From Anthracocystis setariae (lineage: Eukaryota > Basidiomycota > Ustilaginomycetes > Ustilaginales > Ustilaginaceae), in NCBI GenBank assembly GCA_928724745.1, contig CAKMXJ010000012.1:186001-250000 (forward strand): DNA of 64,000 nucleotides. Direction: 5' to 3'. The translations under genes were made by a program, and so were the position numbers. How positions within the stretch are numbered: the stretch's first letter is position 1; the number at the start of each line of letters is the position of its first letter. Shown here in pieces: positions 3,942 through 47,519 of this stretch. Below the pieces are notes generated by a model. It ran no database searches, was not told the origin of the DNA, and saw only the letters and a program-made list of their open reading frames with translations.

Positions 3942-6900
3942 TTAGTTTGCACGCGCCTCGGAAGTCGGCATATCGATTCTGCCGATACCGAGTAGTTGTC
4001 GGTGGGTTTGAACTTTAGACCGATCGAGGGCTTTGGTAAAGCAGTCTGCAGCTTGTTCCGCTGTCGGTACGTACGTAGCGACAACTGTACCCTTCGTTTG
4101 CTGCTCTCTGACAAAATGATATTTGATGTCAATGTGCTTGTTCCTTTGGTGGTCCTTTGGATCCTTTGAGAGGTATATAGCTGCCTGATTATCAACCATT
4201 AACGGTGTCGGTAGCTTGATAACGAAGCCCAATTCGGCCAGCAGGCGTCTGGTCCACACAATTTCCTTGCATCCTTCAGCCATTGCAACGTATTCTGCGA
4301 AGCAAGTGGATGTTGCAACGAGTGTTTGACGTTTTGAAAACCAACTGTAAGGCATGCCGAGAACGGTATTAGCTAGCCCTGTTGTTGATCTCCTAGTCAC
4401 TGTGTCACCACCGAAATCTGCATCTGAAAAGGTGTAAATCTTGGGACCCCAGTCTTCCGACATGGGAGATTTGATACCTTTGTCGGTAAAGGTGAGACCG
4501 TGATCTGCAGTGCCTTTCAGATATCGCAGCAAGTGCTTAGCTGCAACCATAGCATCCTTGGTGGGGGATGCCAGGTGTCTGCTTAGCTTGCTTACTGCAA
4601 ATGCTATATCGGGCCGTGTGCAGGTCGCTATATATAGGATTGATCCCACAATAGTTCGGTAGGTGGAGTGATCGTCTTCGTTGAGCTTATCGCCGCCGGT
4701 AAGGTCCTTACCGTCAGCGGGAGTGTGCACTGTGTTTGCCTGGGATAGGCCGAATCGGTCAATCAATCGGAGGATGTTGGCTGTTTGGGACAGGTGGATC
4801 ATGCCGTTGTCGTGTTTCACTTGGATTCCTAGGATGAACGACACCGGGTCGCCTCCAGTCATCTTGAACTTGGAGCGTAGTGTTTCAATGATTCGTTCTG
4901 CTTGTCTCTTGTCCTTGCAGAAGATGAGGACATCATCTACGTATAGGGAAAGCAATACCGGTGGAGCGTTGTCGTTAACGATGTAGTATAGTGCTGTATC
5001 GTAGTTGCTCCTCGTGAAACCTATATCGATCAAGGTACTGTCGGCCTTCTGGTACCATGCTCTTCCTGACTGTTTCAGGCCATATAGGGCCTTATTTAGT
5101 CGACAAACACGACCAAGTGAGATGCCTTCCGACGTCGCCATGCTGTCTGGAAGAGGGGGAGGTCTCATATAGAGGTCTTTGTCAACTGTACCGTTCAGGT
5201 AGGCTGTGACGACGTCTAGTTGGTAGATCTGCATCTTGCACTGGAGGGCAATGATCATTAACATCCTGAGCGTAGCGATCTTAACGACAGGGGCAAAGGT
5301 CTCTTCATAGTCGATACCATGAATTTGAGTGAAACCTTGTGCTACCAATCTCGCCTTGTACTTATCGATGGAGCCATCACCTTTACGTTTGACCTTGAAA
5401 ACCCAACGACAGCCAATGATATGGGCGTCGTTTGGAGGGGTGACTACGGTCCAGGTGTTGTTTTCCTTATGCGAATCGAGCTCCTTTTGGATTGCTTCTT
5501 GCCACTTGGGCCAGTCCGGTCGTCGTTGAGCCTGTTTTATATGTAGGGGCTCGTCGTCAGTTGTCGGTATGGCAATGCCTTTGTCTGCACAGGCTGCCTC
5601 AGTGAATTCCTGCCCCCCCTCCTCTGCAACCGTAGTGTAAGCCATTCCGGCCATTTCTGCAGCTGTAGGTAAGGGAGGAGTGGAGATACCCTGAGCACGC
5701 TCCTCGTCTGTAAGGAGAGGATAGCCTGTGTAATAAGGGTCATTGTTAACAGATGACGTGGTGTCGATGCCGTCCGAGGCAATTTCATCTTGTGGGGAGT
5801 CGAGTGCGAGTGGCTCGGAAGTGCGAGTGGCCACAGGCTGGTGGACATTGGCCTGTGGTTCTTGGCTTGGCGATGACGTCGCGTTGCCGACGTCGGTAGT
5901 AGCTGCATCCGTAGGGATGGGCCTGTCGTTGAAGGGGAAGGATTTTTCGTCGAAGGTAGCATGATGAGCAGACATTATAGTGTTGTGGTTTGTCTGAAAC
6001 AGCTTGAATGCCTTAGAGCCTTCGGTAACTCCAATGTAGACTGCGGGAATAGCTCTGTCGCTTAATTTATCGCGATTTGCTGCTGGGATGTGTGCCCAGG
6101 CCTTGCATCCAAATACCTTGACCTTGGAGAGGTCGGGATCTTGGTTGAAGAGTCTCTTGTACGGTGAGATCATGCCAATGGCCTTACTTGGAAGACGATT
6201 GTTAAGGTACACTGCATAGAGAGCTGCTTCACCCCATAGGTAACGGGGTGCAGAGCTGTGGATGAGCATAGCTCGAACTTGATTAAAGATGGTCAAGTTC
6301 AAGCGTTCAGCAACGCCATTCTGTTCGGGGGTGTACGGTGACGACGTCTGGTGGATGATACCTGCGTCGGCAAGGGACTTGGCGAAGGGCCGATTACAAT
6401 ACTCGCTACCATGATCGGTGCGGAAGCGTTTTATCTTCTTTCCGGTCTGAGTCTCCATGAGGGTCTTGTAGTTCTGGAAATGGGAAAGCGCTTCCGACTT
6501 CTGTATCATCAAGTAGATGACGGAGAATCGAGTATAGTCATCTGTGAAGGAGATGAGGTATCGGTGTCCTTCGGGAGTAACGTCAGGTAGCTTACCGACG
6601 ACGTCAGAGTGCACTAATTCCAGTGGCTCCGTTGTACGAGTCGTCCGAGTAGGGAACGGTTGTTTGTGGGACTTGGCGACCTCGCAGGAGTTGCATTTAC
6701 CAATGGGGACGCCTTTACTGAATTCGGGAATGAGCTGGGCCATTCCTTTCATCCTAGCGTCCCCTGGATGACCTAAACGATCATGCCATAGGCTTGCAGA
6801 TGTCGTTGTGACTCCGGCAAATTCGAGTTTAGGTTGGACGAGGTACGTAAGCATCCCATTCGTAGTTGTTCCTTTGAAGACGATTTTACCACCTTGGCGA

Positions 6901-8579
6901 GCTGTGAGCGTATTCTTGAAGATGCTGATCTGTGCAGTCTTGGCGACCAAGTTAAGGGACATAAGATTGGCGGCATATGTCGGTACGTATAAAACATTGT
7001 GGAGGATGAGGGTATGCGTTTTCCCGTTACCGAGATCGGCAAGTACCTTAACGGTCCCCTTGCCCTCTGTCTTTACGTGATCACGACTGCCGCTCAGCAG
7101 AGGAGGGAACTCCTCAAGGCTGAGATCTGTAAAGAGATCACGATTGATACAAACGTGAACAGTGGACGCGGAATCGATAATCCATTGCGTCTCAATGCCG
7201 TAACCGCTGTCGGTAGTGGACAAAGCGATGTCGGCAATGGCAAGGCCGGTGAAGAAGGAGGATTGTGACTTCTTGTCGGAGGGTTGTGCTGCTTTATCCT
7301 TAGCCAAGGTAGGGCAATCAGGTCTATAATGACCCTTTTCATGGCAATGATGGCAGGACACTTCCAACAAGGGACGGCGTGGTTTGATCCCTTTGTTGGT
7401 CTTGCCGCGTCTGTTGTTGCGTTGACGCTTATCTGGAGATGATGAAGATGTCGACTTGTGTCTCCATTTGCCGTTACGATTCTTGGCAGATTTGGAGCTG
7501 GAATCATCCGTCTTGGTGTCGGTCAGGAACGCGGAAGTGTTCTGCCGAGGTCGGGCAGCTAAACCAAAGGTATGTAACCCCTGTCTTATTTCCTCGGCCT
7601 TGAGTTGGTCAAGGTAGCTGTCGTACTCAATCTTCTCGTCCAAGGGGGTCCCTTGGAAGTTGAACGTCCTAACGGTACCGTCAGGGTCCATAGAGGTGAA
7701 GGTTTGTACATCCCGACGTCGTCTGTAACTTTCCTCGAGCTGACTTCGAACGGTGTGGTATTCCGATCGGAGACCCTTCATTAAGACGGTGAAGCGCTTA
7801 TTCCAGCTGACTTCAATGCCTCCAAGCTTAAGTTGTTCAACTAGCTTGGTGATTCGTGTGTTATAGGCGGAGATAGTAGTCTTGTCTTGCTTAATGCTAT
7901 TGAGCTGTGTTTCGAACTCTTCAATCTTGTATCGTAGCTTAGCGCTAAACGACTTCTCCAGATGCTTCCATATTCCGTTAGCCGTTTCATGGTGGTTTAC
8001 CATGGTTGCGATTTCGAGTGACATGCTCGACAGTAGGATACCGCGAGCGATAAGGTTGTAACGACGCCAGTCTCGATACTCGTCAGTACCGGGAGCAGGT
8101 ATAGGCGTTTCTGTCATGATGGCATCATAGATGTCTGGGCCCTTTTGCATTAGAGTTGTGATGCAGGTGGCACGCCATTTGAAATAGTCGACAGAGTCGT
8201 CAAGGTCCGGGAGTTTTTGCCCGTTGGAGAGAAGCTGCGTAGCGAAATCGGAAGTAACCTTAGACATGTTGACAGATCTGTAAGGTTGTAACGGAGTTGA
8301 TACCGTGCGTACCGACGAAGGTAGGGGCTCTTGAATAGGAACTTCGCTGTCTTGTACAGCGGAAACGATGTTTTGTGTTGCAGATGAGGCTTCGCTGGTC
8401 ACTACAGCGGGAACAGTGTTTTCGTTATTGCGAACTGTATGGTCTCTCGAGCGTCGCGATTGTGCGGATCGAGGAGGTACTGGGTCTCCGACGTCTGGAA
8501 TCGAAAGAAGAGATCTTACTGGATTGTTTCTTGTGTTGTAGCGTCGGTATTCTCCCAGTCGTGAAGCCGTTGGGCTCAT
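3942..8579 (-). CDS. Copia Gag-Pol polyprotein
   Basis: This uninterrupted frame of 1545 residues has no frameshift between gag and pol. In order: Gag; a CCHC zinc knuckle (CHHCHEKGHYRPDC, C-x2-C-x4-H-x4-C, about residue 410); an aspartic protease with the IDSAST active-site motif; an integrase with an HHCC zinc-binding part (HDRLGH ... CNSCEVAK) and a DDE core; a reverse transcriptase with QLDVVTAYLNG and the YVDD catalytic box; and RNase H (FSDADFGGD, DNQAAIYLS). This order is diagnostic of Ty1/Copia. No stop or frame break is seen, so the protein may be active. The ATG lies inside the primer-binding site, five bases from the 5' LTR, so the mRNA leader is almost entirely LTR-derived. Confidence 0.95.
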   Translation of the reverse strand: MSPTASRLGEYRRYNTRNNPVRSLLSIPDVGDPVPPRSAQSRRSRDHTVRNNENTVPAVVTSEASSATQNIVSAVQDSEVPIQEPLPSSVRTVSTPLQPYRSVNMSKVTSDFATQLLSNGQKLPDLDDSVDYFKWRATCITTLMQKGPDIYDAIMTETPIPAPGTDEYRDWRRYNLIARGILLSSMSLEIATMVNHHETANGIWKHLEKSFSAKLRYKIEEFETQLNSIKQDKTTISAYNTRITKLVEQLKLGGIEVSWNKRFTVLMKGLRSEYHTVRSQLEESYRRRRDVQTFTSMDPDGTVRTFNFQGTPLDEKIEYDSYLDQLKAEEIRQGLHTFGLAARPRQNTSAFLTDTKTDDSSSKSAKNRNGKWRHKSTSSSSPDKRQRNNRRGKTNKGIKPRRPLLEVSCHHCHEKGHYRPDCPTLAKDKAAQPSDKKSQSSFFTGLAIADIALSTTDSGYGIETQWIIDSASTVHVCINRDLFTDLSLEEFPPLLSGSRDHVKTEGKGTVKVLADLGNGKTHTLILHNVLYVPTYAANLMSLNLVAKTAQISIFKNTLTARQGGKIVFKGTTTNGMLTYLVQPKLEFAGVTTTSASLWHDRLGHPGDARMKGMAQLIPEFSKGVPIGKCNSCEVAKSHKQPFPTRTTRTTEPLELVHSDVVGKLPDVTPEGHRYLISFTDDYTRFSVIYLMIQKSEALSHFQNYKTLMETQTGKKIKRFRTDHGSEYCNRPFAKSLADAGIIHQTSSPYTPEQNGVAERLNLTIFNQVRAMLIHSSAPRYLWGEAALYAVYLNNRLPSKAIGMISPYKRLFNQDPDLSKVKVFGCKAWAHIPAANRDKLSDRAIPAVYIGVTEGSKAFKLFQTNHNTIMSAHHATFDEKSFPFNDRPIPTDAATTDVGNATSSPSQEPQANVHQPVATRTSEPLALDSPQDEIASDGIDTTSSVNNDPYYTGYPLLTDEERAQGISTPPLPTAAEMAGMAYTTVAEEGGQEFTEAACADKGIAIPTTDDEPLHIKQAQRRPDWPKWQEAIQKELDSHKENNTWTVVTPPNDAHIIGCRWVFKVKRKGDGSIDKYKARLVAQGFTQIHGIDYEETFAPVVKIATLRMLMIIALQCKMQIYQLDVVTAYLNGTVDKDLYMRPPPLPDSMATSEGISLGRVCRLNKALYGLKQSGRAWYQKADSTLIDIGFTRSNYDTALYYIVNDNAPPVLLSLYVDDVLIFCKDKRQAERIIETLRSKFKMTGGDPVSFILGIQVKHDNGMIHLSQTANILRLIDRFGLSQANTVHTPADGKDLTGGDKLNEDDHSTYRTIVGSILYIATCTRPDIAFAVSKLSRHLASPTKDAMVAAKHLLRYLKGTADHGLTFTDKGIKSPMSEDWGPKIYTFSDADFGGDTVTRRSTTGLANTVLGMPYSWFSKRQTLVATSTCFAEYVAMAEGCKEIVWTRRLLAELGFVIKLPTPLMVDNQAAIYLSKDPKDHQRNKHIDIKYHFVREQQTKGTVVATYVPTAEQAADCFTKALDRSKVQTHRQLLGIGRIDMPTSEARAN

Positions 8580-23366: not shown

Positions 23367-25423
23367 TCAGTTGGTGGTGGCGGCGGCAGCAGCAGCGGCG
23401 TCAGTGACGCTGAGCTTGGCAACATCTGGAAGCTCCTCTGGGTTGGTGATGAGCTTGGTCACCTTGCCGATAGCAACCGTACGTCCCTCGTCACGCAGCG
23501 TGAAACGACCAAGCTGAGGGTAGTCCTTGAATCTTTCCACGCAGATCGGCCCTGCCAGCTCGACCAGAGCGATGATCTTCATCCCCTTCTTGGCGAATTG
23601 AGGTCCACGTCGACTCTTCTTGCCCGTCTTCTTGTCGTAGTAGTGCAACAGAGCCGCCAAGTTGGCCTCTTGCGACACAGTGTGGCAGTGCACCACCGCA
23701 CTGTACCCAGCGCAGATGATGTTGCGGTGCTCGAGGATCGCAAGCTGAGCCTCAAAGTGCGTTGCGACGTGCACCGGGTTTCGAGGGTCCGACAGCACGT
23801 GACCCACGCTGACTTCTTCGTGATCGACACCCTTCAACTTGACACGGATGTTGTCACCAGAGATGGCTGCTGGCACCTCCTCCTCCTGCTCGTTGAAGAT
23901 GGCCACCGCCTCGACCGACACCTTGTTGGGCATCAGCAGAAGGCTGTCACCCTTCTTGATCTTACCAGCTTCGAGCTTGCCAACAACGACGGTACCCATG
24001 TCGTTGTACTTTTCCGAGATCGGCATCTTGAGCGGCGCCTGGATCTTTCGGTCGCCGAGCTCGAGGTTGTCGAGGAACTCGAGCAGCGAAGGGCCATCGT
24101 ACCAGCTGCACACGCTCTTGGGTACGCGGTCCTTGAGGTTCTGTCCGGCGAAGGCAGAGACCGGGATGTAGGTGATATCGGTCTTGGGGTTGAAACCAGC
24201 CGATCGCAAGAAGGGAGTGAGCTTGGACTGGATCTCGTCGTAACGAGACTGCTGCCACTGCACTGTCGGCTCATCCATCTTGTTGACCACGACGATCAGA
24301 CGCTGGACACCCGCGGTCTTGACCAGCACGGCGTGTTCACGAGTCTGTCCACCTCGCTCGAAACCCGTCTCGAACTCTCCCTTACGTGCCGAAATGACGA
24401 GGACGGCAACGTCGGCTTGAGCGGCACCGCTGATCATGCTGGGAACGAACGACTTGTGGCCAGGCGCATCCAGGATGGTGTAGCGGCGCTTGCCCGTCTC
24501 AAAGTAGGCACGTCCGACCTCGACGGTCTTACCCTTTTCGCGCTCCTGCTGTGTCGAATCGAGCGCCCACGAGAGATACCACGACTCTCGACCGGCCTCC
24601 TTGGCTTCACGCTCGTACTTTTCCATCGTTCGCTTGTCCACCATGCCGGTGAGGTAGAGCAGGTTGCCACCCATGGTCGACTTGCCGGCATCGACGTGAC
24701 CTATAAAGACAATGTTGAGATGCGACTTGAGCTCGTCACTCTTGTCGCCGAAAAGGTCTTTGAGCGTCTCCTCATCCGTCATCTTGGTAGCCTCGGCGAG
24801 AATCTGGTCGGCATTGGTTGTGGATCGCTCGGTAGCGACAGGCTTGGACGAAAGCGAAGCCACCTTGGCTTCAGACTTGGGCTCGGCAGCTGGTGCTGGC
24901 GATTCGGCGCGAGACGAGGGTGCAGATGTGGTGGCGGGGGGTTCGGTAGCCTTGACCGCGGCGACGGCGGCGGCGGGTGCAGGGTCGGCCTTTTCAGCCT
25001 CAGGCTTCTTGGCGGCGCTGGCACCGCCGATCGAGATGCTGACGGGCTTGCGCGGAGCTTCAGCCTTGTCAGCGTTGGAAGCAGCGGCGGGCTTGGCGCC
25101 TCCACCGATCGAGATGCTTACAGGCTTTCGTGGTGCTTCCGACTTGTCGGCGGCGGCAGCGGCGCCAGCAGCAGCAGGCTTGGCTCCGCCTCCAATCGAG
25201 ATGCTGACGGGCTTTCGAGGAGCGGCATCGGCGGCAGGCTGAGCGGGACGGGCTGGCGACTGAGCGGAACCGGAGGCAGCGGGTCGAGGAGGAAGTGCAT
25301 TGAAACCCTTCTGAGCAAATTGGTTGGAGAAGCCCTGCTGGTTGAAGCCCTGCTGAGCATAGCCGCCACCATAGGGCTGCTGCTGATATTGTTGATACTG
25401 ATTCTGGAAGCCACCGTTGAAGC

Positions 25424-25460
<37 letters not shown>

Positions 25461-25613
25461 ACCAAAGCCCTGCTGGTAGTAACCGCCCTGCTGACCGTAA
25501 GGGAAACCACCCTGTTGCTGGCCTTGCTGACCCTGCTGCTGCTGCTGCCCGCCAGGCACAAAGCCGGAGGCGTTGGGGTTGAAGCCGCCGAAGCTGGGAG
25601 CGTTAGGGTTCAT
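23367..25613 (-). CDS. SUP35: translation termination factor eRF3 (SUP35)
   Basis: 748 residues in one exon with an ATG start. The N-terminus MNPNAPSFGGFNPNASGFVPG contains a PAM2-like motif (FNPNASGFVP), which in eRF3 binds the MLLE domain of poly(A)-binding protein. A Q/G/Y-rich prion-like stretch with a pure Q run follows (to about residue 105). Three near-exact copies of a RKPVSISIGG unit lie at about 130-205. The GTPase core starts near residue 300 with GHVDAGKST, followed by DAPGHKSF and NKMDEP, then two beta-barrel domains like EF-Tu/EF-1alpha to the C-terminus. eRF3 binds eRF1 and uses GTP to drive peptide release at stop codons. The head/middle/core layout matches yeast Sup35. A long frame open on the opposite strand is a composition shadow. 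Confidence 0.95.
25424..25461. repeat. (CTG)n run coding the SUP35 poly-Q tract
   Basis: About 12 consecutive CTG triplets on the plus strand (CAG in the gene) encode uninterrupted glutamines in the prion-like region. Such a tract is prone to length change. Confidence 0.9.
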
Positions 25614-28177: not shown

Positions 28178-29035
28178 GATAATGGAAGGGGTGACGAAAC
28201 GGTTTGTCTATGGTGTATGTGGGCGTCGTCGACGACTGTGTGGGGGAGGAGTGGATTGAGTGTCTGCTTTCACCTGAAAAGGTGCACATGTCCAAAGGCC
28301 ACTCACTTGGCTGTGCTTGCATCGCAGGGGCCATCCCTTTCTCCGAATTCCAATCTGCGAATTCGCCTTTACGGTGTGCAGCCCAAGTCGGTACGGTACC
28401 GTACGTGGCATTGCATGCATGCGAGCTGCACGCACAACGCCCTAGTCCGAAGTCTTGTTAAGCCGAAGCCCCTATGATACTGACTACGCCTGCATGTCTG
28501 GCTGAAAGCTACTCTTCCCAATAGAAGGTGAACATAACGCGATCCACCACTCCATGTACCTCATTGACATTGAACTGCGTCCGATGGCAGGCTTTCACGC
28601 TGTCAAGTTGGCAGTTTCTAGACCAACACTTGACCGCCGAAACGCAGACGTGACGCGCAATTTCGGCCAGATTATTTCTTCCTTTTTAGACTGTGAGGTT
28701 AGGCTAGCAACTAACATCCGTCGTCCAATTTATTTCGGCCAGAACTCGCCGAGCTTCGGATGGGACGAAAGGAGACAAGATGGAATTGTGACTTGGACGT
28801 GATTCGTTGCCCAACCCTCATCCACCTCATCCACCCATTGCGTCTGGCCTCATCGAACCCCACCAGTTGGAGCTACTGCAGGTCCACAAAGCCTCGCACA
28901 ACCGTCTGCAAGGTCCTACACACACTGGCTAGCGTCGCTTTCCATTCTTGAAGAACGATGGCTAGGTAGCTGTGACTGCGTCGGAATCGCTTGGAAACCG
29001 CAACTGCTCCTCGGCAGTTCACAAGGCCTCTCACC
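28178..29035. promoter_or_regulatory. divergent promoter region Rho-GDI / fusion gene
   Basis: 858 bp between divergent start codons. A GGTACGGTACCGTAC block lies near 28390. No gene is seen. Confidence 0.45.
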
Positions 29036-32000
29036 ATGAGCTGGTCCAAGGCAGGTGCCAAGGCTTCGGTAAGCCTCGTCCGGAAGGTTGCGCTCGATGC
29101 GTCCTATCCCAGTGGCGTGATACAACGGTACTCGCTGCCTCGCAACCTATTCTACCATCCGCGTCGGTCGAGACTTTTGATTCCAACCCAGAGACTCAGC
29201 ATCTCGACATCATCCGTATCCGCAGCAGCCACCGAATCGAGAGCCAAATCTGCAAATGGGACCACGGCAGCGGCAGCGTCCAAATCTAATGCGACTCCTT
29301 CTGTGCGGGTCAAGGATACCAGGACTTCCGCATTATCCAGCGCCATCGCCGAGGGCTCCTCACGTACTCCTGAGCCAGACACCGTCCTCAAGGTAGATGA
29401 ACAGCTTCAAAGCAGCAGAAAAGTGTCACGCACCACCGCAGAAGCATCTCAGCCATCCGCATCCCAAAAACAGCAGCAGCAGGAATCTCCCGAGGCCCCT
29501 CAGCAGCAAGGTCAACACGGTCAGCAGACGCTCAACAGCGGCCCTGCCACCCACGAGGATCTGCTCAAACAGCGCTTCTTCCATGCGCAGGAGCAGAACA
29601 AAAGGGTCTACTCGGGACTAACACCGCCCACCAATCAAGCTGCAAATCTCTATCCTTCCTTTACCACTCCTCAAGGTGACGGTGTGATCCCACCAGAAGG
29701 TGGTGTCGGCTCTTCTTCCAACGCTTCCAGTTCCGCATCGACCTCTTCGGGCACTGGTCAGCAAGGTACAAGCCTCAACGCCTCTTCGCCAGATGCATTT
29801 TCCGACGGCGCGCAGACGACGTTCGCTGGTACTGAGCGCGCAGACATCGAACTAGATGCTCGATCGCACCGTCCCGCTTCGTCCCAATCGATCCAGAGCC
29901 TTGAAGTACCCTTCGACACCCATGGATTCGTCAAGCGACTCGAAGCCGGAGGCTGGGTCTCGAATGCAGCCAAAGCACAGCGTCTTTCCCCTACCACCAA
30001 GTCCGGCAAAGCCAAACAACCTCAGTCTGAAGCGAGCGCGCAACAAGTCTCGTTGCACATCGCTCGCCGTCACGACCCAGCCGAGGCCATGATGGAAGGC
30101 GTTCGCCACCTCGTCACGCATCGTGGACGCCAACTCGCACACGCCTGCCTTAACAAAAGCGACGTCGAGAATCAAGCTTACCTGTTCAAAGCTGCTCTCT
30201 CCGAGATCCGCACCGAAGTCCAAGTGCGAGCAAGAAACGACGCGGCTGGCCTGCGCAGCATCACCACTCTCCTCCAGCGTGAGGTGGACGCCTTGGAACA
30301 GAAGATGAAAGAGGACATCGAGAGACTCAAGCATGATATTCAGGTGGATATGAACAATCGCAAGGCCGAATCCAAGGAAGAGCAAAACAACCTCGAGCAG
30401 GAGATCCAGGATCTGAACAACAGGTTCACCATCAGTCTTTCCGATCTTAAGACCGAGATCGAGCAGAACGTCAAGTGGGATGCCACCAGGAGGAGCTTGC
30501 TACTCGTCTTTGGTATCGCCGCGATCGTTGCTGCTAACCTTGCCATCGCCGACTATTTGACCAGGGACGATGAGGCGGCCAAGGCAGCAGCAAACAAGGA
30601 GGGCATCCCTGCAGGTCACCCGCCTGCATCTGCAAACGCCGGCGCTCCAGCATCGCTGGGGTGGGCTACCGAGGGTCGCATCTTGTCGGTGGTGCCCATC
30701 ATGCTCATGAAGCCGAACGGTCGCATGGCAGCAACAAGCCATCGCATCATCCACCAGCTTCGTCGTCAGTTTTCGAACAACATTCCTGCTGTCGCAACTG
30801 CGGGTCTTCACACCGTGTCGGTCGCGCACCGAATGCAACCTCACCCGGCAACCGCAGCTTCAACAATGGCCGTGCCCGCTAGGCGACGTTTCGGTTCCTC
30901 AGCCATTGCCAAGAACCAGTCGGCTCAACTCCACGTACCCGACTCCGATGTGGTTATCGAGCTTCATTCGGACGGCATCTCGATCCGGTCCCCGAAGCTT
31001 GGCTTGGAACCTTTCCGATTCGACCACGTCTGGCTCCGCGATGCTTGCCAAGCGCCCCAATCGGTCCACCCAAGCAACCGTCAGAAGCTCTTCCATACCA
31101 GTGACGTTCCTCTCGATGTCAACCTCCTAGATCCACGCCATCCTCCTACCATTGTAACCAGCGAAGGCGAGCCAGCGCTCCGACTGACGTTCGCCAAGGA
31201 GCATGCCGTAGTCAATGCCTTTACCGCCGCCTTCGGCCAAGTCAAACCCGCCGATGCACCGCATACCTCGGAGTTCCCCATCTCGTATCTGCTCCGCCAT
31301 GCCATCGACACGTTCTACGCGGACACGCACATGGATATCATGTCCGTCCCCGAGACTTGGGCTGCCAAGGACCTCACGCATTTCAAGACGGCCCCTTGGA
31401 CGCCCGACTCGCGTGTACCCGACAATGCCATGGAGGGTGCCCTTGCCCGTCCCGCGCGAATCCCGTGGGAGGCTATCCGACCCGAAGACGACTCGGACGC
31501 ACGCACAAAGGCGCTGTACGCTCTGACCGAGGCGGTCGTACGTGATGGCTTTGCTTTCGTCACTCGTCTCCCCACCGACAAGACTGCCACCGAAGCAGGT
31601 CCCGACTCGGCTCGACTTCGCGATCTGGCTGAAATCATGGGAGAGCTCCGCAACACCTTCTACGGTCTACTCTGGGATGTGCGATCCGTAGCAAATGCGC
31701 GCAACATCGCATATACAAACCTTGACTTGGGCTTGCACATGGATCTGCTCTACTTCCAGAACCCGCCTCGCTTCCAGTTCTTGCACATGCTCAGAAACAA
31801 GGTCCGCGGTGGAGCAAGTATCTTTGTCGACTCGTTCAAGGTCGCCGAGCGCATGTGGCAAGAAGATCGTCCCCTCTGGGAAGCCCTGACCAAGGTTCCT
31901 GTTGGGTTCTACTACATCAACGATGGCAGGCATTACCGCTTTACTCACCCGACGTTCGAGCTCGCTCACGACACCGAAGGCCATTCGGGTCCACCTCTGG

Positions 32001-33586
32001 CTGGTACAGCTATGCCCAGGTTGAGTGCCGTCAACTACTCGCCGCCATTCCAGTCGCCTCTGCCTCTCCACCCTACGAAGGAGTTGCAGACCAGGGAGCA
32101 GAGGGATCTGTTCTATCGTGCGCTCAAGCGATTTTCGGATCTGACGCTGGCGGAAGAATTCAGATACGAAAAGCAGATGGAAGAGGGAGAATGCGTCATC
32201 TTTGACAACCGCAGGGTGCTGCACTCGAGGAAAGGGTTTGAGTGGGATCAGGGCGAGAAGGGCGAGGTCAAGAGGTGGTTGAAGGGGTGCTATGTGGATG
32301 GAGATGCTATCTGGAGCTCGTACCGCACGCTCAGGACCAAGGTTCACGGACGCGCTCCGCTGGTGCCCGGTGGTCGTAGAGGTATCCACACAACCGCTGC
32401 ACCTGCTGGTTTTCAAGCTCGATCGTTCAGCACTAGTTCCGACAAGAAAGCGCTCGCAGCGACAGCGTCCTCCACCACTCACGGTCTCGACCCTTCCGGC
32501 TTCGCTCCTGTGTCCGACGACCCAACCGTGGTCGACCTGCGCTCGCTCTCTGGTCTGCGCTCTCGCGAAGCATCCACCACGTTTTCGTCCTACCGCCCGG
32601 TTGCGCCGCTTACCACCGCCACTCTGCCCAAGCTCTACAAGCAGCTGTCCAAGTCGCGTCTGACCTTCCTGGTCGTTTTGACGGGTATGGCGGGATACGC
32701 CCTGTGCCCGGCGGCGCTGACCGTTGCTGTTGCTTCACCGGTGACGACGCTTCTGGCGCTGACTGCGGGGATGACCATGTGCTCGGCTGCCGCCAATGCA
32801 TTGAACCAACTGGTCGAGGCTCCGTACGATGCACAGATGCCTCGAACGCGTCAACGCCCGCTCCCGTCGCGGTCTGTAACGCCGCTGCACGCATTCACGT
32901 TTGCAAGTTCGTCCGCCATTGCCGGCGTCAGTCTACTGGCTACCATGGTCAATCCGCTGACAGCCGCCCTGGGAGCGGCCAACATCGTGCTGTACTCGTT
33001 CACGTATACGCCGATGAAGCGGATGAGCATCGCCAACACGTGGGTCGGCGCGATCGTCGGTGCTCTCCCGCCGCTCATGGGCTGGGCGGCATGTACGGGT
33101 ACACTGACCCACAGCACCGACCTGGGCGGATGGTCACTAGCGGCACTGCTATTCGCTTGGCAGTTTCCTCACTTCAACTCGCTGGCACACACGCTTCGGG
33201 CCGAATATGCTAGAGGCGGCTATAGAATGATGGCGGTCACCAATCCGGCGCTGAACCGACGCGTTTCGCTCCGATACGCCGTAGCTCTGCTGCCAATCTG
33301 CACGTTGGCGATGCCATTGAGTGGAATCGTCAATCCAGTGTCGTATGCGCTGCTTAGCTCACCGCTGAATTTGTTCATGGCTCATGCAGCGTGGAAGTTC
33401 TACAGGGACAAGACGGTCAAGGCGGCGAGGTGGTGTTTTTGGGTCAGTCTGATTCATCTGCCTGCGGTGATGCTGTTGGCAATGGGGTGTAAGCCTGAGG
33501 TTTGGAATGCTGTGTACAGGTTTTTCGGCTGGAATCAGCAGCAGAACGAGGAGGAGGAGGAGGGGGTGAAGGGGGATGTTGTGTAA
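29036..33586 (+). CDS. COX10: triple mitochondrial fusion: Fmp32/MCUR1-like - gamma-butyrobetaine dioxygenase-like - COX10
   Basis: One open frame of 1516 residues starts at ATG 29036 (MSWSKAGAK). Part 1 (about 290-510) resembles DUF1640/Fmp32/MCUR1: FDTHGFVKRLEAGGW, NQAYLFKAALSEIRTEVQ, coiled coil, one TM. Part 2 (about 635-1100) is a TauD/GBBH-type 2-oxoglutarate Fe(II) dioxygenase with an N-terminal DUF971-like domain (VWLRDACQ); Fe ligands H901 and D903 (LHMDLLYF) and H1063 (VLHSRKGF). Part 3 (about 1195-1500) is COX10 haem A farnesyltransferase with the prenyl-diphosphate motif NQLVEAPYDAQMPRTRQRPLP and several TM segments. A presequence-like segment precedes each part, with cleavage-like sites at QRLSISTSS (about 52-60), RRRFGSS (616-622) and ARSFSTSS (about 1128-1135). 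Part 2 could start at an internal ATG (30725). Part 3 has no ATG of its own before its first TM. Unrecognised introns cannot be excluded, for example around residues 305-345. Confidence 0.75.
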   Translation: MSWSKAGAKASVSLVRKVALDASYPSGVIQRYSLPRNLFYHPRRSRLLIPTQRLSISTSSVSAAATESRAKSANGTTAAAASKSNATPSVRVKDTRTSALSSAIAEGSSRTPEPDTVLKVDEQLQSSRKVSRTTAEASQPSASQKQQQQESPEAPQQQGQHGQQTLNSGPATHEDLLKQRFFHAQEQNKRVYSGLTPPTNQAANLYPSFTTPQGDGVIPPEGGVGSSSNASSSASTSSGTGQQGTSLNASSPDAFSDGAQTTFAGTERADIELDARSHRPASSQSIQSLEVPFDTHGFVKRLEAGGWVSNAAKAQRLSPTTKSGKAKQPQSEASAQQVSLHIARRHDPAEAMMEGVRHLVTHRGRQLAHACLNKSDVENQAYLFKAALSEIRTEVQVRARNDAAGLRSITTLLQREVDALEQKMKEDIERLKHDIQVDMNNRKAESKEEQNNLEQEIQDLNNRFTISLSDLKTEIEQNVKWDATRRSLLLVFGIAAIVAANLAIADYLTRDDEAAKAAANKEGIPAGHPPASANAGAPASLGWATEGRILSVVPIMLMKPNGRMAATSHRIIHQLRRQFSNNIPAVATAGLHTVSVAHRMQPHPATAASTMAVPARRRFGSSAIAKNQSAQLHVPDSDVVIELHSDGISIRSPKLGLEPFRFDHVWLRDACQAPQSVHPSNRQKLFHTSDVPLDVNLLDPRHPPTIVTSEGEPALRLTFAKEHAVVNAFTAAFGQVKPADAPHTSEFPISYLLRHAIDTFYADTHMDIMSVPETWAAKDLTHFKTAPWTPDSRVPDNAMEGALARPARIPWEAIRPEDDSDARTKALYALTEAVVRDGFAFVTRLPTDKTATEAGPDSARLRDLAEIMGELRNTFYGLLWDVRSVANARNIAYTNLDLGLHMDLLYFQNPPRFQFLHMLRNKVRGGASIFVDSFKVAERMWQEDRPLWEALTKVPVGFYYINDGRHYRFTHPTFELAHDTEGHSGPPLAGTAMPRLSAVNYSPPFQSPLPLHPTKELQTREQRDLFYRALKRFSDLTLAEEFRYEKQMEEGECVIFDNRRVLHSRKGFEWDQGEKGEVKRWLKGCYVDGDAIWSSYRTLRTKVHGRAPLVPGGRRGIHTTAAPAGFQARSFSTSSDKKALAATASSTTHGLDPSGFAPVSDDPTVVDLRSLSGLRSREASTTFSSYRPVAPLTTATLPKLYKQLSKSRLTFLVVLTGMAGYALCPAALTVAVASPVTTLLALTAGMTMCSAAANALNQLVEAPYDAQMPRTRQRPLPSRSVTPLHAFTFASSSAIAGVSLLATMVNPLTAALGAANIVLYSFTYTPMKRMSIANTWVGAIVGALPPLMGWAACTGTLTHSTDLGGWSLAALLFAWQFPHFNSLAHTLRAEYARGGYRMMAVTNPALNRRVSLRYAVALLPICTLAMPLSGIVNPVSYALLSSPLNLFMAHAAWKFYRDKTVKAARWCFWVSLIHLPAVMLLAMGCKPEVWNAVYRFFGWNQQQNEEEEEGVKGDVV

Positions 33587-34340
33587 GCAGAGTTTCGAAT
33601 TAGAGTGGAATAGATACTCTGTACGCATGTGTGCGCTTTCATAACTTTGATGCTGTTTGAAACGAGGCAGTTGTGAGTTGTGGATGCTCGACGGTCTGGC
33701 TTTCGCGTCGTGCGGTGTGATCTGAAACCAGCTGCGGCGGGGCGGCTTACAGATGCGATGATTGCTGAACTCGTGCTGTACAGCATGTTTCATCTGACCG
33801 ACGATCATTGATTACTTTGAGAGGTACAGTCGACAAAGATTGTGAGATCCAACTACTTTGTTGATGGCGAGTGGGTTAATTTTCTCATCTCGTGCAGTTC
33901 AATGTGGGCACAAGATGTTTTAACTTAGCGTTCTTGTGTAGAATCCAGACGATCAGTTGATGGAAGTGGACGAACCAGTTTGCGAGATCCACTCCATCAC
34001 TATGCGCGCGCGAGAGAGAGAGAGATTGTCTTGTTGATGCTCTGTTGCATCCGATCCAAAGTGGCCACACGATGCAGTAGCGCATCCACTAACCAGAATG
34101 CAAGAGAGAGTCAAGCAGAGTTCGGAATATGATCAACCAGATGGGCGAGACTTTACCTGATTGACGTTGACGCATCATCACTATTTACTGTGGATTGCGA
34201 GCTACGAGCACGTAAACGCTCTGTGCCTATCCTCTTTCTTCCGGTTTGAGGTGGGCACAGGATGCAGTAGTAGCGTTCTTCTAGAACCCAGACTACGTCA
34301 TCGGCAACCGATTTGTGAGATACATATCACCATGTTGGCG

Positions 34341-42982: not shown

Positions 42983-43162
42983 ATGCATCACGTGGTCGGA
43001 AAGAGGGCGTGCGCGTCTGGGCTGACCTATCGGCCGGCTACTCTTTCCTTCCACGTTTATCTTTATAGCTTTATCATTATCTCGTAGCTTCCTCTCCTCC
43101 ATCATCTTCATCACAGCCAAGCGTGCTCAATGCACCTCTTGGCTGTCTCTTTTCTCTGTTCT
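42983..43162 (+). repeat. split direct repeat A1
   Basis: 180 bp, matching 47689-47868 with one difference (T at 43131, C at 47837). It contains the likely element promoter and leader and ends 11 bp before the Gag start codon. Confidence 0.93.
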
Positions 43163-43173
43163 TCACTGACACC

Positions 43174-44457
43174 ATGGCCACTAACGAGAAGCACTGCCGT
43201 ACCTGCAAGCGCTCTCGACCACTCGCTCTCTTTGTCCATCAGCGCTTCCAACACCAAGTCACCACGGCGTGTTTGGACTGTAGACAGGGTCGCCGCACCC
43301 CTGCCACTCGAGCAGCGCAGCCATCGTCACCCACGACAGCATCACTCCAACCACCTGTCGCCCCAGCCCCTTTCACCACCACCCAGTCGCCCTCCTCCTC
43401 ACCTCCATCGGGCGTCCAGAACTCATCACCGACCCCTCAGCTAGCTCCACAATCCCAGGCCCCGATTGCTCTCCCGGCCCTCCCCACCACTCTGACTCCA
43501 CCGCCCCAACCGGTGCAACAAGAATTTGTTACTCGAGCAGACTTGGCCCCCTTTGTCACCAGAGACGACCTCACACTTTGCATCGGTGAGCTACGTCAAT
43601 TCTGGCAAGACGAATTAGCACCTCTGCTTCCTAACGCCACCGTTCCACCCCCAGCCCCCGCGACGACCGCTCCCCCACCGACCACTACCACGGTCTCGAC
43701 ACCGCCAACGATAGCTCCGGCCCTCCCAGCCCGCATTGGTGAGTTCAGACCCGCCGTCTCCTACCCCTGGATTCCCTCGGAACTGGTTGATCGAGTCCAC
43801 AACAACTTGCTCGGTGTCTACGAGCTTCCAAAGCTCGCTAACCCATCGTGGCCAGGGGCTGTCTCGCCGGCTCAGGACGAAACAGTAGTCATCGAGGGTG
43901 TCTCCGTCGTCAAGTCTTCGACCACTTCCTCATCAAACAAGCAATTCATCAAGGCCGTGCCCAACTTTGCCACCTTTGGCCGGCTCTGGATCGTATACCT
44001 CACGCTACGAGCATCGAGCTCTCGTGATTCCGACCTTCCAGTCAGCCTTGGACGGTTCTACCAGCACATCGCCGACCTCTCGGACGTCTTCCACTGGGAC
44101 AGAGTCGCTGGGTATGTCATTGCCGTGTGTACAACCCGTCTTGGCAGGGCCTCCTCCGCCGACTGGGCTCGTTTTGACACAGAGCTGCACGCCACCCACT
44201 TCCAAGGCGTTCAAGCTCGGTCGACCAACACCACCACCGGCACCTCGTCCGGCAAGCGATCAGCACCACGAGCCGACGACCCCCGACGCGACCAGTACTG
44301 CTTCTCCTGGAACAATGGCAGGTGCTCAGGTACTGAGCAACGACCCTGCATCAGGAAGCACGCCTGCTCGCACTGCGGCGCTGCCCATCAGGCCAAGTCC
44401 TGCAGCAAGTCCATTTCCACCACTGGTCAACCCAACAAGGTCGCCAAAAGCGATTAG
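43174..44457 (+). CDS. Ngaro/DIRS Gag-like protein
   Basis: 427 residues starting at ACCATGG (43174). The frame is open a little upstream but only with GTG. The N-terminus has two CxxC pairs ([10 protein letters not shown] ... CLDCRQGRR), a probable zinc-binding module. Residues about 40-190 are Pro/Thr/Ser-rich. The central domain ([30 protein letters not shown] and on) resembles capsid-like parts of DIRS/Ngaro ORF1. The C-terminus carries a cysteine/histidine cluster, [10 protein letters not shown] ... [19 protein letters not shown], typical of tyrosine-recombinase elements. Its last 347 bases overlap the RT frame. It probably packages element RNA. Confidence 0.82.
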
Positions 44458-46573
44458 TTTCCCTCGTGAGTCTACCTCGCTCAGCCGACAGCCTCCTCTC
44501 CCACTCGGCACGTCCCGATCAGCCTCAGCGGTCCCAGCATCCTGGCCGATCCCAGCGACCCCCTCTCCTCTCCCTCAGCCCTGTGGCGCCTCAGTTCGAG
44601 CGCAACGTCTCCTGGCCCCACCCAGTGGTCTCACATTGTCCTTTCCCCCTCAACCTTGTGGAGCCCCAGTTCGAGCGCAACGCCTCCTGGCTCCACCTAA
44701 TGGTCCAACATGGTCCTTATCGGCCCCAGCGGCACACGGGGTGTCCCGACCGATACCAGCGACTTTCTCTACTCTTCGACCTCTGCAGGTGCCGCCGGCT
44801 GACCTCGCATCTGCCATACTTACAACCCTGCAGACATCCACTCCACCGGCTCGCCCCAACACCACCATCACCGAGCCGCTTTTCAATATCACCGACTGTC
44901 CAGCACGCCACGGCTCCATGCAAGCCACCGTCGATCACTGGAGCCTGGCCCTTACCAACTACCCGGACCAGCACTTCGTTGATCAGCTCTTGGGCGCCAT
45001 CCGGCATGGCACCCGTTTGGGATACTCTGGTCCACTCCTCACCCACGGCCGATACCAGCGAGTTCACAATCTTCCTATGGACGATGCCGGACGCGCTCAT
45101 GTTCGGTCAGAGATCAAGACTCGCCTTCTCGAAGGGCGTATTGTCGAAGCGGACCCAAGTCAGTGTCTACTAGTTTGCTCTCCGGTGGGCACTGTGCCAA
45201 AACCGCGCTCAACGAAGCTCCGCACGATCCATCACCTGTCCCATCCCCGCAAGCCTCGCCCGGACCAGCTTCCCTCGGTCAACGCCGGTATCGCCAAGCA
45301 CTTCACCACCATCAAGTACGCTACACTGGCGCCCATCCTCTCCTACGTCCGGGAGAACCCTGGGTGCCGACTTTGGAAGAGCGACTTGACGGACGCTTTT
45401 CGGCACGTGGTGACATCCCAATCCGACGCTCGTCTCCTAGGATTCACCTTCGACGGCTACTACTTCATGGAGACTGGTCTCACGTTTGGCGGTCGAAGCG
45501 CTCCCTGGCTCTTCAACCTCTTTGCGGAGGCTTTGCACTGGATCGTTCAGTCCACAACGGACACCCCCGTCGAGCATTACCTCGATGACTTCTTCGGCGC
45601 AGTCCCAGCGTCGCAAGACTCAGGCCAGCCTCTCCACGCCCTCGCCCTAGCGTGCTCGGCCCTTGGTCTAAGTTTGGCACCCAGCAAAACCTCTTGGAAC
45701 GATACCAGGCTCGAGATCTTGGGTATTGAGGTGGACACGACCCAACAGAGTGTCGGCATCACCGATGAACGCCGTCAACGCATCCTGGAGGCGATCGACG
45801 CCCTGCTCAATCGCCAGTCTGCGCGTCTCATTGACTGGCAGCGCATAGCTGGCCTCCTTCAGTTTGTGTCTCAGGTTATTCCACACGGGAGGGCCTACCT
45901 CCGCCGCCTCTACGACGCTTCGAAGGCCGCCCACCGTCACCCCCTCTCTCTTCGCCGCATCTCCAGAGCCGCCACGGCAGAGCTGCGCTGGTGGCGCACC
46001 ACCCTGAAGTCTTGGTCAGGCTTGTCTCTCCTCCAACCGACACCACTGGTCGTGGAGCATGTTTGGACGGACGCCTCCAAGAGAGGGTACGGAGCTCACT
46101 GCGGACCAATGCTCTCTCCGGTCTCGGTCTTTTCCCGTGAGGTGCCACGCAGGCACAGGTCCAAGGACATCCGCTTCTTAGAAGCTCTTGCGGTTCTAGA
46201 GGCCCTGCGCGCTTTCTCTCCTCTCTGGCATGGGCCTCGCACAGTGGTCCTCTACATCGACAACACCAACGTCGAGCACGGCTTGCGTTCTGGCCGGTCA
46301 CGCGATCCCCTTACGCAGACGTTGCTTCGGGAGATTTTCGGCCTCTGTTTCCTTCGCCAGATCACCCTTCGACCAGTTCGTATTGCTTCTATTGATAACC
46401 ACCTTGCTGACCTACTCTCTCGACGCCGTTTCCGCATCATTCAGGCTCGTTTCCCTCGGGCACACCTTCTTCTCTTCCCTCCCACCTCCGGCCCCCCCCA
46501 AGTCCTTCATCGAAGCCACCGGCTGCTCCGCCACAGCAGCAGGCTACATCTGGCGGGGCTTGGCGGAATCTAG
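44111..46573 (+). CDS. Ngaro reverse transcriptase - RNase H
   Basis: The frame is open from 43898 to 46573. The first ATG is 44111, and a better-context ATG (ACAATGG) is at 44315, so the start is uncertain; a programmed frameshift from Gag is also possible. After a Pro/Ser-rich N-terminal part, RT begins around [20 protein letters not shown]. Motifs: [13 protein letters not shown] (motif A Asp), [14 protein letters not shown] (motif B), EHYLDDFFG (YxDD box). RNase H follows with [39 protein letters not shown] and [13 protein letters not shown], supplying the acidic catalytic residues. The sequence style matches DIRS-order elements. No internal stop is seen. The 3' end overlaps the recombinase frame by up to 344 bases. 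Confidence 0.88.
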
Positions 46574-47519
46574 TCGCCGCCGCGGTGCCGGCGTCCCAGA
46601 CCGGTACAGGTCCTTCGTCTATCGACACTTTGGCCCCGCGGCCGTCCCCTTCCCAGCAAGCGACCTCTTCCTCACCGAGTGGGTCTGCGACCTGGCGAAA
46701 ACACGGTCGTACCACAGCACCAAGCACGACCTTGACGCTCTCCGGTCCTGGCACGTTGATCTCGGCCTGCAGCTCGACGGTTTCACCCAAGGCCGCCTGG
46801 AGCGCGCCATCCGAGGCATTAAGCGCACCCACGGCCTCCGCCCAGCAGCTGCAAAACTTCCGATCACCCTCCCTCTCCTCCGTGCCGTCCTCGAGGAACT
46901 CCACCACACGCCGTCTCTTGGCGCATGGGATCGGCAAGTCTTGGCAGCCGCTTTCTCCGTCTCCTTCGCCTGCTTCCTTCGTTGCGGCGAGGTCACCTGG
47001 GATCAGTCGGCTCCACCACAGCTGCAAGTTGCCTCCGTCACATGGTACGAGGACTATGCCGTACTGCTCCTTCCTGCCTCCAAGACCGACCCCTTCCGCC
47101 TCGGCACTCCCTTGGTCATTCCAAAAGTCGGCGGCATCGAGTGTCCGTACCACGCCCTGCGCGTCATCTGCCCAGGCGTCCGCTGCCGCACCGACCCACT
47201 TTTTGGCCTCCAGGACGGCCGGCGGCCGCTCACGCGGTCCTTCTTCCTCCATCACCTCCGGCTGGCGCTATCGCGCCTGGGCCTCGACATCAAGCAATAC
47301 GCCGGCCACTCTTTCCGGCGTGGCGCAGCAACGTGGGCGGCATCGCAGGGTATCGATGCCGACACAATCAAGCTTCTCGGCCGCTGGACGTCCGACTGCT
47401 ATCGCCGGTACGTCGACAGGTCCGCCGCCGACCGTCGAACCCTCGTCGCCTCGTCCCTGTATGCCACGCGCCACGGCCCGCTCGTTCCCCCGATCTCTTG
47501 GCGCGATCCCGTCCTTTGA
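46230..47519 (+). CDS. Ngaro tyrosine recombinase
   Basis: 429 residues from ATG 46230. The first 90 or so overlap the RNase H frame and are of low complexity, so translation may start later (conserved sequence begins near [16 protein letters not shown]). An N-terminal SAM-like domain (YRSFVYRHF ... [17 protein letters not shown]) precedes the catalytic domain. Catalytic residues: Arg in FLRCGEV (about 251), H-x2-R in [12 protein letters not shown] (about 361-365), Trp in [10 protein letters not shown] and the nucleophile Tyr in RRYVD (about 394). These are the R..HxxR..W..Y residues of tyrosine recombinases. The enzyme should insert a circular DNA copy by site-specific-type recombination, which explains the missing integrase. 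It appears intact. Confidence 0.9.

What the first reader, a model, noticed from the sequence alone, without database searches (positions are those of the whole stretch)
29036..33586. Three mitochondrial proteins joined in one 1516-codon frame
Seen: a single frame without a stop runs through an Fmp32/MCUR1-like coiled-coil membrane protein, a gamma-butyrobetaine-type dioxygenase with all three Fe ligands, and a full COX10 with its prenyl-diphosphate motif. Known: each is normally a separate mitochondrial protein. A natural fusion would tie haem A synthesis, a carnitine-type dioxygenase and an inner-membrane assembly factor to one transcript. I do not know of a described case with this domain order.
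Basis: partly seen in the sequence, partly recalled or inferred. Interest (0 to 1): 0.88.

Follow-up and report, generated by a model that had tools for sequence, protein, structure and literature searches.

The report
Three-in-one mitochondrial protein precursor gene
One unbroken 1,516-codon reading frame in this genome encodes three different mitochondrial-type proteins end to end, and it is likely translated as a single precursor that is predicted to be cut into separate proteins inside mitochondria at import-signal-like stretches between them; a second, two-protein frame of similar layout lies elsewhere in the same genome.

The parts
29036..33586 (+). single reading frame, 1516 codons plus stop: tandem precursor
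   Evidence: one place at 100%, no stop inside
29036..29233 (+). predicted N-terminal mitochondrial presequence, aa 1-66 (inferred; acid-free basic stretch aa 22-66)
   Evidence: coding score of this piece is neutral (0.00)
29912..30535 (+). CCDC90/Fmp32/MCUR1-like domain, aa 293-500
   Evidence: PF07798 162.8 bits, cut-off 33.5
30494..30550 (+). predicted membrane segment of the CCDC90-like part, aa 487-505
   Evidence: hydropathy 2.42
30674..30940 (+). linker 1: acid-free stretch aa 547-635 with 11 R/K, predicted internal presequence
   Evidence: helix aa 568-580 in a low-confidence part of the model
30701..30703 (+). first in-frame ATG of linker 1 (M556; further ones at 558, 564, 600, 611): possible relic or alternative start
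30764..30775 (+). R577-Q-F|S580, predicted MPP site
30884..30895 (+). R617-R-F|G620, second possible MPP site, 8 residues before the dioxygenase fold
30917..32350 (+). GBBH-like Fe/2OG dioxygenase, aa 628-1105 (Fe ligands H901, D903, H1063)
32306..32440 (+). end of the dioxygenase and start of linker 2: acid-free stretch aa 1091-1135 with 7 R/K, predicted internal presequence; no ATG in it
32420..32431 (+). R1129-S-F|S1132, predicted MPP site
32633..33484 (+). COX10 (heme O synthase), aa 1200-1483
   Evidence: TIGR01473 258 bits, cut-off 210.3; single place over cut-off in the genome

Best explanation
The frame encodes a CCDC90/Fmp32-like membrane protein, a GBBH-like dioxygenase and COX10 in tandem, and it is likely translated as one precursor that the mitochondrial processing peptidase (MPP) is predicted to cut at presequence-like linkers into three separate proteins. 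Shown: the open frame, the three domains, coding-like linkers, an R-x-F|S motif in each linker, no in-frame ATG between M1048 in the dioxygenase and M1218 in the first membrane segment of COX10, and a second frame (MCU-COQ2) of similar layout. Inferred: the N-terminal signal starts import; MPP cuts in linker 1 (after F579 and/or F619) and in linker 2 (after F1131), giving pieces of about 62, 62 and 41 kDa; the CCDC90-like part stays in the inner membrane, the dioxygenase is a matrix enzyme, COX10 inserts in the inner membrane and makes heme O. As COX10 lacks a start codon of its own, its synthesis would be tied to that of the dioxygenase at least.
For: Three complete domains in one frame. Linkers score +0.16 and +0.20 bits per codon in frame; 613 coding windows average +0.13 (sd 0.10), 2824 noncoding windows -0.16 (sd 0.12). 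Linker GC 0.61 and 0.64 against 0.48 downstream of the stop. No strong-donor intron in the linkers. No ATG for COX10 and no other COX10 place over the cut-off. R.[FY]S occurs 4 times in 439 linker residues of the two tandem frames, and 2 times in 23,558 residues of 37 background frames beyond residue 60; expected 0.14 by composition or 0.04 by that rate, P of 4 or more 1.6e-5 or 7.8e-8. All three linkers of the two frames have it, within acid-free stretches of 20 or more residues with at least 3 R/K; 2 of 37 background frames have such an internal stretch. Second tandem frame MCU-COQ2. Tandem precursors cut by MPP are described: Arg5,6 (passages), Rsm22-Cox11 cleaved after import (passage).
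Against: No transcript, protein or relative was available. Linker borders and the motif were chosen after seeing the frames. The looser acid-free, Arg-rich filter is not specific: 12 of 37 background frames have one inside, and it misses the MCU-COQ2 linker. R.[FY]S also occurs at residue 190 of this frame, outside the linkers, and at residue 109 of the standalone CCDC90 paralog. The N-terminal 66 codons and COX10 itself score only 0.00 and +0.04 on codon usage. The CCDC90-like membrane segment in mid-chain is awkward: in yeast the N-terminal domain faces the matrix, so what follows would face the intermembrane space unless linker 1 is imported anew or the whole chain passes first.
Confidence: 0.68

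Rival explanations
1. A permanently joined three-domain protein works uncut in the inner membrane and holds the dioxygenase and COX10 next to the CCDC90-like part.
For: One frame, complete domains; no cleavage was observed, since none could be.
Against: Each linker carries a presequence-like stretch with an R-x-F|S motif, rare in background frames; linkers are modelled as disordered, pLDDT under 50 (weak because the linkers had no aligned relatives); the CCDC90 membrane segment would put the dioxygenase on the other side of the membrane from its own domain.
Confidence: 0.13
2. Two overlapping units: an upstream CCDC90 product and a separate dioxygenase-COX10 product started at an internal promoter and one of the ATGs at residues 556, 558 or 564.
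For: Five in-frame ATGs lie in linker 1, the first three just before the presequence-like stretch.
Against: There is no stop after the CCDC90 part, so the upstream product would still run on; the linker codons before M556 (aa 526-555) score as coding (+0.20). COX10 would still be joined to the dioxygenase.
Confidence: 0.12
3. Artefact: separate genes joined by sequencing error, or broken up by introns that the frame happens to read through.
For: No reads or relatives were available to exclude error. 23 codons of linker 1 (aa 513-640) and 10 of linker 2 are one base from a stop. Weak splice donors were not excluded.
Against: Two stops would have to be lost with the frame kept twice; no strong donor in the linkers; COX10 would have no start codon in frame; a second, unrelated tandem frame has a similar layout; linkers look coding.
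Confidence: 0.07

Closest known systems
Yeast Arg5,6 tandem precursor (Friedl et al. 2020, not held; seen through passages of PMC8847149 and PMC8835746)
   Same: Several mitochondrial proteins in one precursor; internal presequence-like stretch and MPP-type motif at the junction.
   Different: Arg5 and Arg6 are two enzymes of one pathway; here three parts with two internal junctions, two of them membrane proteins, and no shared pathway shown. Cleavage not tested here.
S. pombe Rsm22-Cox11 (passage of PMC12375894) and Etp1 (listed in a passage of PMC8847149; that it is Cox15-Yah1 is recalled)
   Same: A cytochrome c oxidase biogenesis factor joined in frame to another mitochondrial protein; Rsm22-Cox11 is cleaved after import.
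   Different: Other partners. In this genome Cox11, Rsm22 and Cox15 lie apart: Cox11 on C1 in exons of 443- and 81-codon frames, Rsm22 on C1 in a 1001-codon frame, Cox15 on C22 in a 593-codon frame.
MCU-COQ2 frame of the same genome (G000 C2, L016:2414-5413 minus)
   Same: Two unrelated mitochondrial proteins in one frame, the last a UbiA-type prenyltransferase; linker with two R-x-Y|S motifs and in-frame ATGs.
   Different: Two parts, not three; linker richer in acidic residues (32 D/E of 178).
Human gamma-butyrobetaine hydroxylase BBOX1 and bacterial TmpA (middle part only)
   Different: Two of three N-terminal zinc cysteines lost, Asn292 position is Ser, equivalog cut-offs of both missed.

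Membership tests
COX10 / heme O synthase | TIGR01473 over its curated cut-off, whole profile | tested here: met
   258 against 210.3 bits, profile 2-278 of 281
COX10 / heme O synthase | farnesylates heme B; needed for respiration | not testable with these tools
   needs yeast complementation or assay
CCDC90/Fmp32/MCUR1-like | PF07798 over its cut-off, followed by a membrane segment | tested here: met
   162.8 against 33.5 bits; membrane segment 487-505
Gamma-butyrobetaine hydroxylase | Fe triad His-Asp-His and 2OG Arg | tested here: met
   H901, D903, H1063, R1080; same letter in 71 of 71 bacterial rows
Gamma-butyrobetaine hydroxylase | aromatic cage and Asn191 (Asp in trimethyllysine hydroxylase) | tested here: met
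   Y876, W880, Y893, Y1086 and N890; Asn191/Asp231 from a passage of PMC7764450; the Y366 cage role and Y194 partly recalled
Gamma-butyrobetaine hydroxylase | Asn292, which binds the substrate carboxylate | tested here: not met
   S1002 at that column; column varies in bacteria too: A 32, N 21, G 8, H 7, S 3 of 71; role from passages of PMC12067446
Gamma-butyrobetaine hydroxylase | N-terminal zinc cysteines / GBBH-like_N domain; equivalog cut-off | tested here: not met
   C671 kept, A673 and S676 in place of Cys (zinc role recalled); no PF06155 hit, which the paralog L014 has; TIGR02409 186.9 against 414.75 bits
MPP-cut mitochondrial tandem precursor (Arg5,6 type) | two or more mitochondrial proteins in one frame | tested here: met
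MPP-cut mitochondrial tandem precursor (Arg5,6 type) | presequence-like stretch and MPP-type motif at each internal junction | tested here: inconclusive
   R-x-F|S in acid-free basic stretches at both junctions; no trained presequence predictor was available, and the looser filter is not specific
MPP-cut mitochondrial tandem precursor (Arg5,6 type) | cleavage by MPP in mitochondria | not testable with these tools
   needs import assay or N-terminal proteomics
Rsm22-Cox11 type fusion | Rsm22 and Cox11 in one frame | tested here: not met
   C1:234868-235974 minus and C1:317507-318083 plus, apart

The most novel reading that the evidence does not exclude
This fungus makes unrelated mitochondrial inner-membrane and matrix proteins as multi-part polyproteins cut by MPP: a three-part one (CCDC90 - GBBH-like dioxygenase - COX10) and a two-part one (MCU - COQ2). 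Heme O synthase and COQ2 are each made only as the tail of such a chain, behind a protein of the uniporter set (MCUR1-like, MCU), which ties heme A and ubiquinone supply to those partners and points to a working link between CCDC90 and cytochrome oxidase assembly.
Probability: 0.45. Interest if true: 0.75.

Novelty: new variant of a known kind. Interest (0 to 1): 0.58.

Why it matters
Tandem mitochondrial precursors are few and, as far as I recall, two-part. A three-part one with two internal cut sites, plus an unrelated second case in the same genome, would make this fungus a good system to ask how import copes with a membrane segment in mid-chain and why such fusions are kept. [quoted passage not shown] Co-synthesis with COX10 leans towards the first view and would predict a role near cytochrome oxidase for the middle dioxygenase too; this is inference.

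Tried and rejected
Fungal relatives: the protein database was off. A scan of viral contigs and the first scan of prokaryote genomes gave no relative; the second gave 73 bacterial dioxygenase relatives, used for alignment, model and tree only. Tree of the dioxygenase (73 rows: fused enzyme, its paralog and 71 bacterial rows): the fused enzyme is the longest branch (3.16) and its place is unresolved, so no origin is claimed. Loose acid-free, Arg-rich filter: not specific (12 of 37 background frames); dropped as evidence by itself. Helical moment: best 18-mer of linker 1 is 0.62, above the background 90th percentile of 0.56 per 60 residues; linker 2 (0.37) and MCU-COQ2 (0.35) are below the background mean of 0.44, so amphipathicity supports linker 1 only. 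Bacterial-type promoter and terminator scan of linker 1: none found, not meaningful for a fungus. AATAAA/ATTAAA/TATAAA motifs: none from 28501 to 34200, the true ends included, so uninformative. CCDC90 part against solved structures by sequence: none at E 0.1. Fusions known from S. pombe: not present as such; places of the family of cardiolipin synthase sit in frames of 287-503 codons, not examined further. Literature: ten searches in all; those aimed at these combinations were 10 (5 unrelated papers) and 11, 39, 68, 69 (no paper). The library holds open-licence papers only, so this is weak evidence of novelty. PMC12895284 was looked at in passages and not used; PMC4381221 was seen in listings only.

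Full report
Observation. The frame is as described: ATG 29036 to the stop ending at 33586, 1516 aa; the nearest upstream in-frame stop is at 28973. Pfam finds three families, each far above its cut-off: CCDC90-like 293-500, TauD 828-1086, UbiA 1224-1471. NCBIfam names the last part heme O synthase above its cut-off and over nearly the whole profile. The window holds no N.

Is it one gene? Codon usage learned from 37 long frames of the same genome (25,778 codons) was compared with that of 70,478 noncoding bases. Both linkers score like coding sequence in this frame (+0.16 and +0.20 bits per codon; coding windows average +0.13, noncoding -0.16) and below zero in the other two forward frames. Not every piece scores well: the first 66 codons score 0.00 and COX10, a certain coding region, only +0.04. 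Among noncoding windows, 80 of 7270 (115 codons) and 58 of 8158 (93 codons) were both open and as high as the linkers; some may be unrecognised exons. Linker GC is 0.61 and 0.64, against 0.48 downstream of the stop. A scan for introns with a strong donor (GTRNGT), a branch site and YAG from 28973 to 33700 found two candidates that share one donor, both inside COX10 and none in the linkers; weak donors were not excluded. There is no in-frame ATG between residue 1048, inside the dioxygenase, and residue 1218, inside the first predicted membrane segment of COX10, so in this frame COX10 cannot start intact at an ATG of its own. In the genome (21.47 Mb, 36 contigs) only this place passes the heme O synthase cut-off.

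Copies elsewhere. A standalone CCDC90-like frame of 324 aa on C10 ends right after its membrane segment. A standalone dioxygenase on C10 (568 aa) passes the cut-off of trimethyllysine dioxygenase (356.9 against 268.3 bits); the fused one shares 30% identity with it and is a different, diverged enzyme. The TauD model finds three further places, on C32, C18 and C4, not examined.

A second tandem frame. The only other place found by the heme O synthase model lies on C2 in a 1060-codon open frame; the ATG frame is 999 aa. Its first part is the mitochondrial calcium uniporter MCU (PF04678; closest solved chain 6dnf_A, 5.4e-66), its last part COQ2 (TIGR01474, 334.7 against 275.45 bits). It is the only MCU place found in the genome. 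Its linker reads as coding (+0.26). I had not looked for this pattern; it came out of the search for further COX10 copies.

What the linkers look like. Linker 1 holds 89 residues (547-635) without D or E and with 11 R/K; linker 2 begins in a 45-residue acid-free stretch (1091-1135) with 7 R/K. Each has R-x-F|S: RQFS at 577, RSFS at 1129; linker 1 also has RRFG at 617. An arginine at -2 or -3 is the MPP hallmark (passage of PMC8835746); trimming of the residue exposed after an R-3 cut is recalled. The MCU-COQ2 linker has two such motifs (RQYS at 599, RRYS at 625). In 37 background frames R.[FY]S occurs 2 times in 23,558 residues beyond residue 60, in the linkers 4 times in 439; P of 4 or more is 1.6e-5 from composition or 7.8e-8 from the background rate. 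Linker borders were set by domain hits and the motif chosen after seeing the frames, so these odds flatter the case. Against it: the motif also occurs once outside the linkers (residue 190) and at residue 109 of the standalone CCDC90 paralog; a looser acid-free, Arg-rich filter matches 12 of 37 background frames and misses the MCU-COQ2 linker; helical moment stands out only for linker 1 (0.62; linker 2 0.37, MCU-COQ2 0.35, background mean 0.44). With R.[FY]S inside an acid-free basic stretch, 2 of 37 background frames match, and three of three tandem linkers. In the AlphaFold2 model of residues 526-1199 (mean pLDDT 68.2) residues 526-627 and 1119-1199 have pLDDT under 50, with one helix at 568-580 that ends at the RQF|S site; these linkers had no aligned relatives, so the model says little there.

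Mechanism and topology. The most likely route is a tandem precursor: an import signal at the N-terminus, further signals in the linkers, MPP cutting at each. That is what is reported for Arg5,6; internal signals and MPP motifs were reported for Atp25, Etp1, Rsm22-Cox11 and others (passage of PMC8847149), and Rsm22-Cox11 is cleaved after import (passage of PMC12375894). The awkward point is the CCDC90 membrane segment (487-505) in mid-chain. In yeast the N-terminal domains of the homologs Put6 and Put7 face the matrix (section 7 of PMC7519068), so the chain after it would face the intermembrane space. Either linker 1 is taken up anew, or the whole chain passes first and the CCDC90 part inserts from the matrix side after the cut (inference). 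MCU has two predicted membrane segments, so the same problem does not arise for MCU-COQ2.

What was not possible. 

Verdict. The gene fusion is real at sequence level (about 0.9). The tandem-precursor mechanism is the best reading (0.68). The kind is known; the three-part make-up, the partners and the second case were not described in the papers I could search.

Noticed in passing
L016:2414-5413 minus strand (G000 C2, near 1570800-1572900): A 999-aa frame joins MCU and COQ2, with two R-x-Y|S motifs and in-frame ATGs in the linker: a second tandem mitochondrial precursor, not described in the papers searched.
   Followed up: partly
L118 (G000 C1, 234868-235974, minus strand): Rsm22 lies in a frame of at least 994 aa with a long low-complexity C-terminal tail; it is not joined to Cox11 in this genome.
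   Followed up: partly
window 23367-25613, minus strand: Translation-factor GTPase of the eRF3/Sup35 kind (EF-Tu type domains; the name is recalled) with a Q- and G-rich N-terminal region.
   Followed up: no
window 3942-8579, minus strand: 1545-aa frame that looks like an intact copia-type retrotransposon polyprotein (judged from the translation, no family search).
   Followed up: no
window 43123-47519, plus strand: Overlapping frames that look like a reverse transcriptase and a tyrosine recombinase, perhaps a DIRS-like element (judged from the translation, no family search).
   Followed up: no
L014 (G000 C10, about 100062-101765): Standalone trimethyllysine dioxygenase over its cut-off, while no place in the genome passes the GBBH cut-off: if carnitine is made, the last step has no clear gene, and the fused dioxygenase is the closest candidate.
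   Followed up: partly
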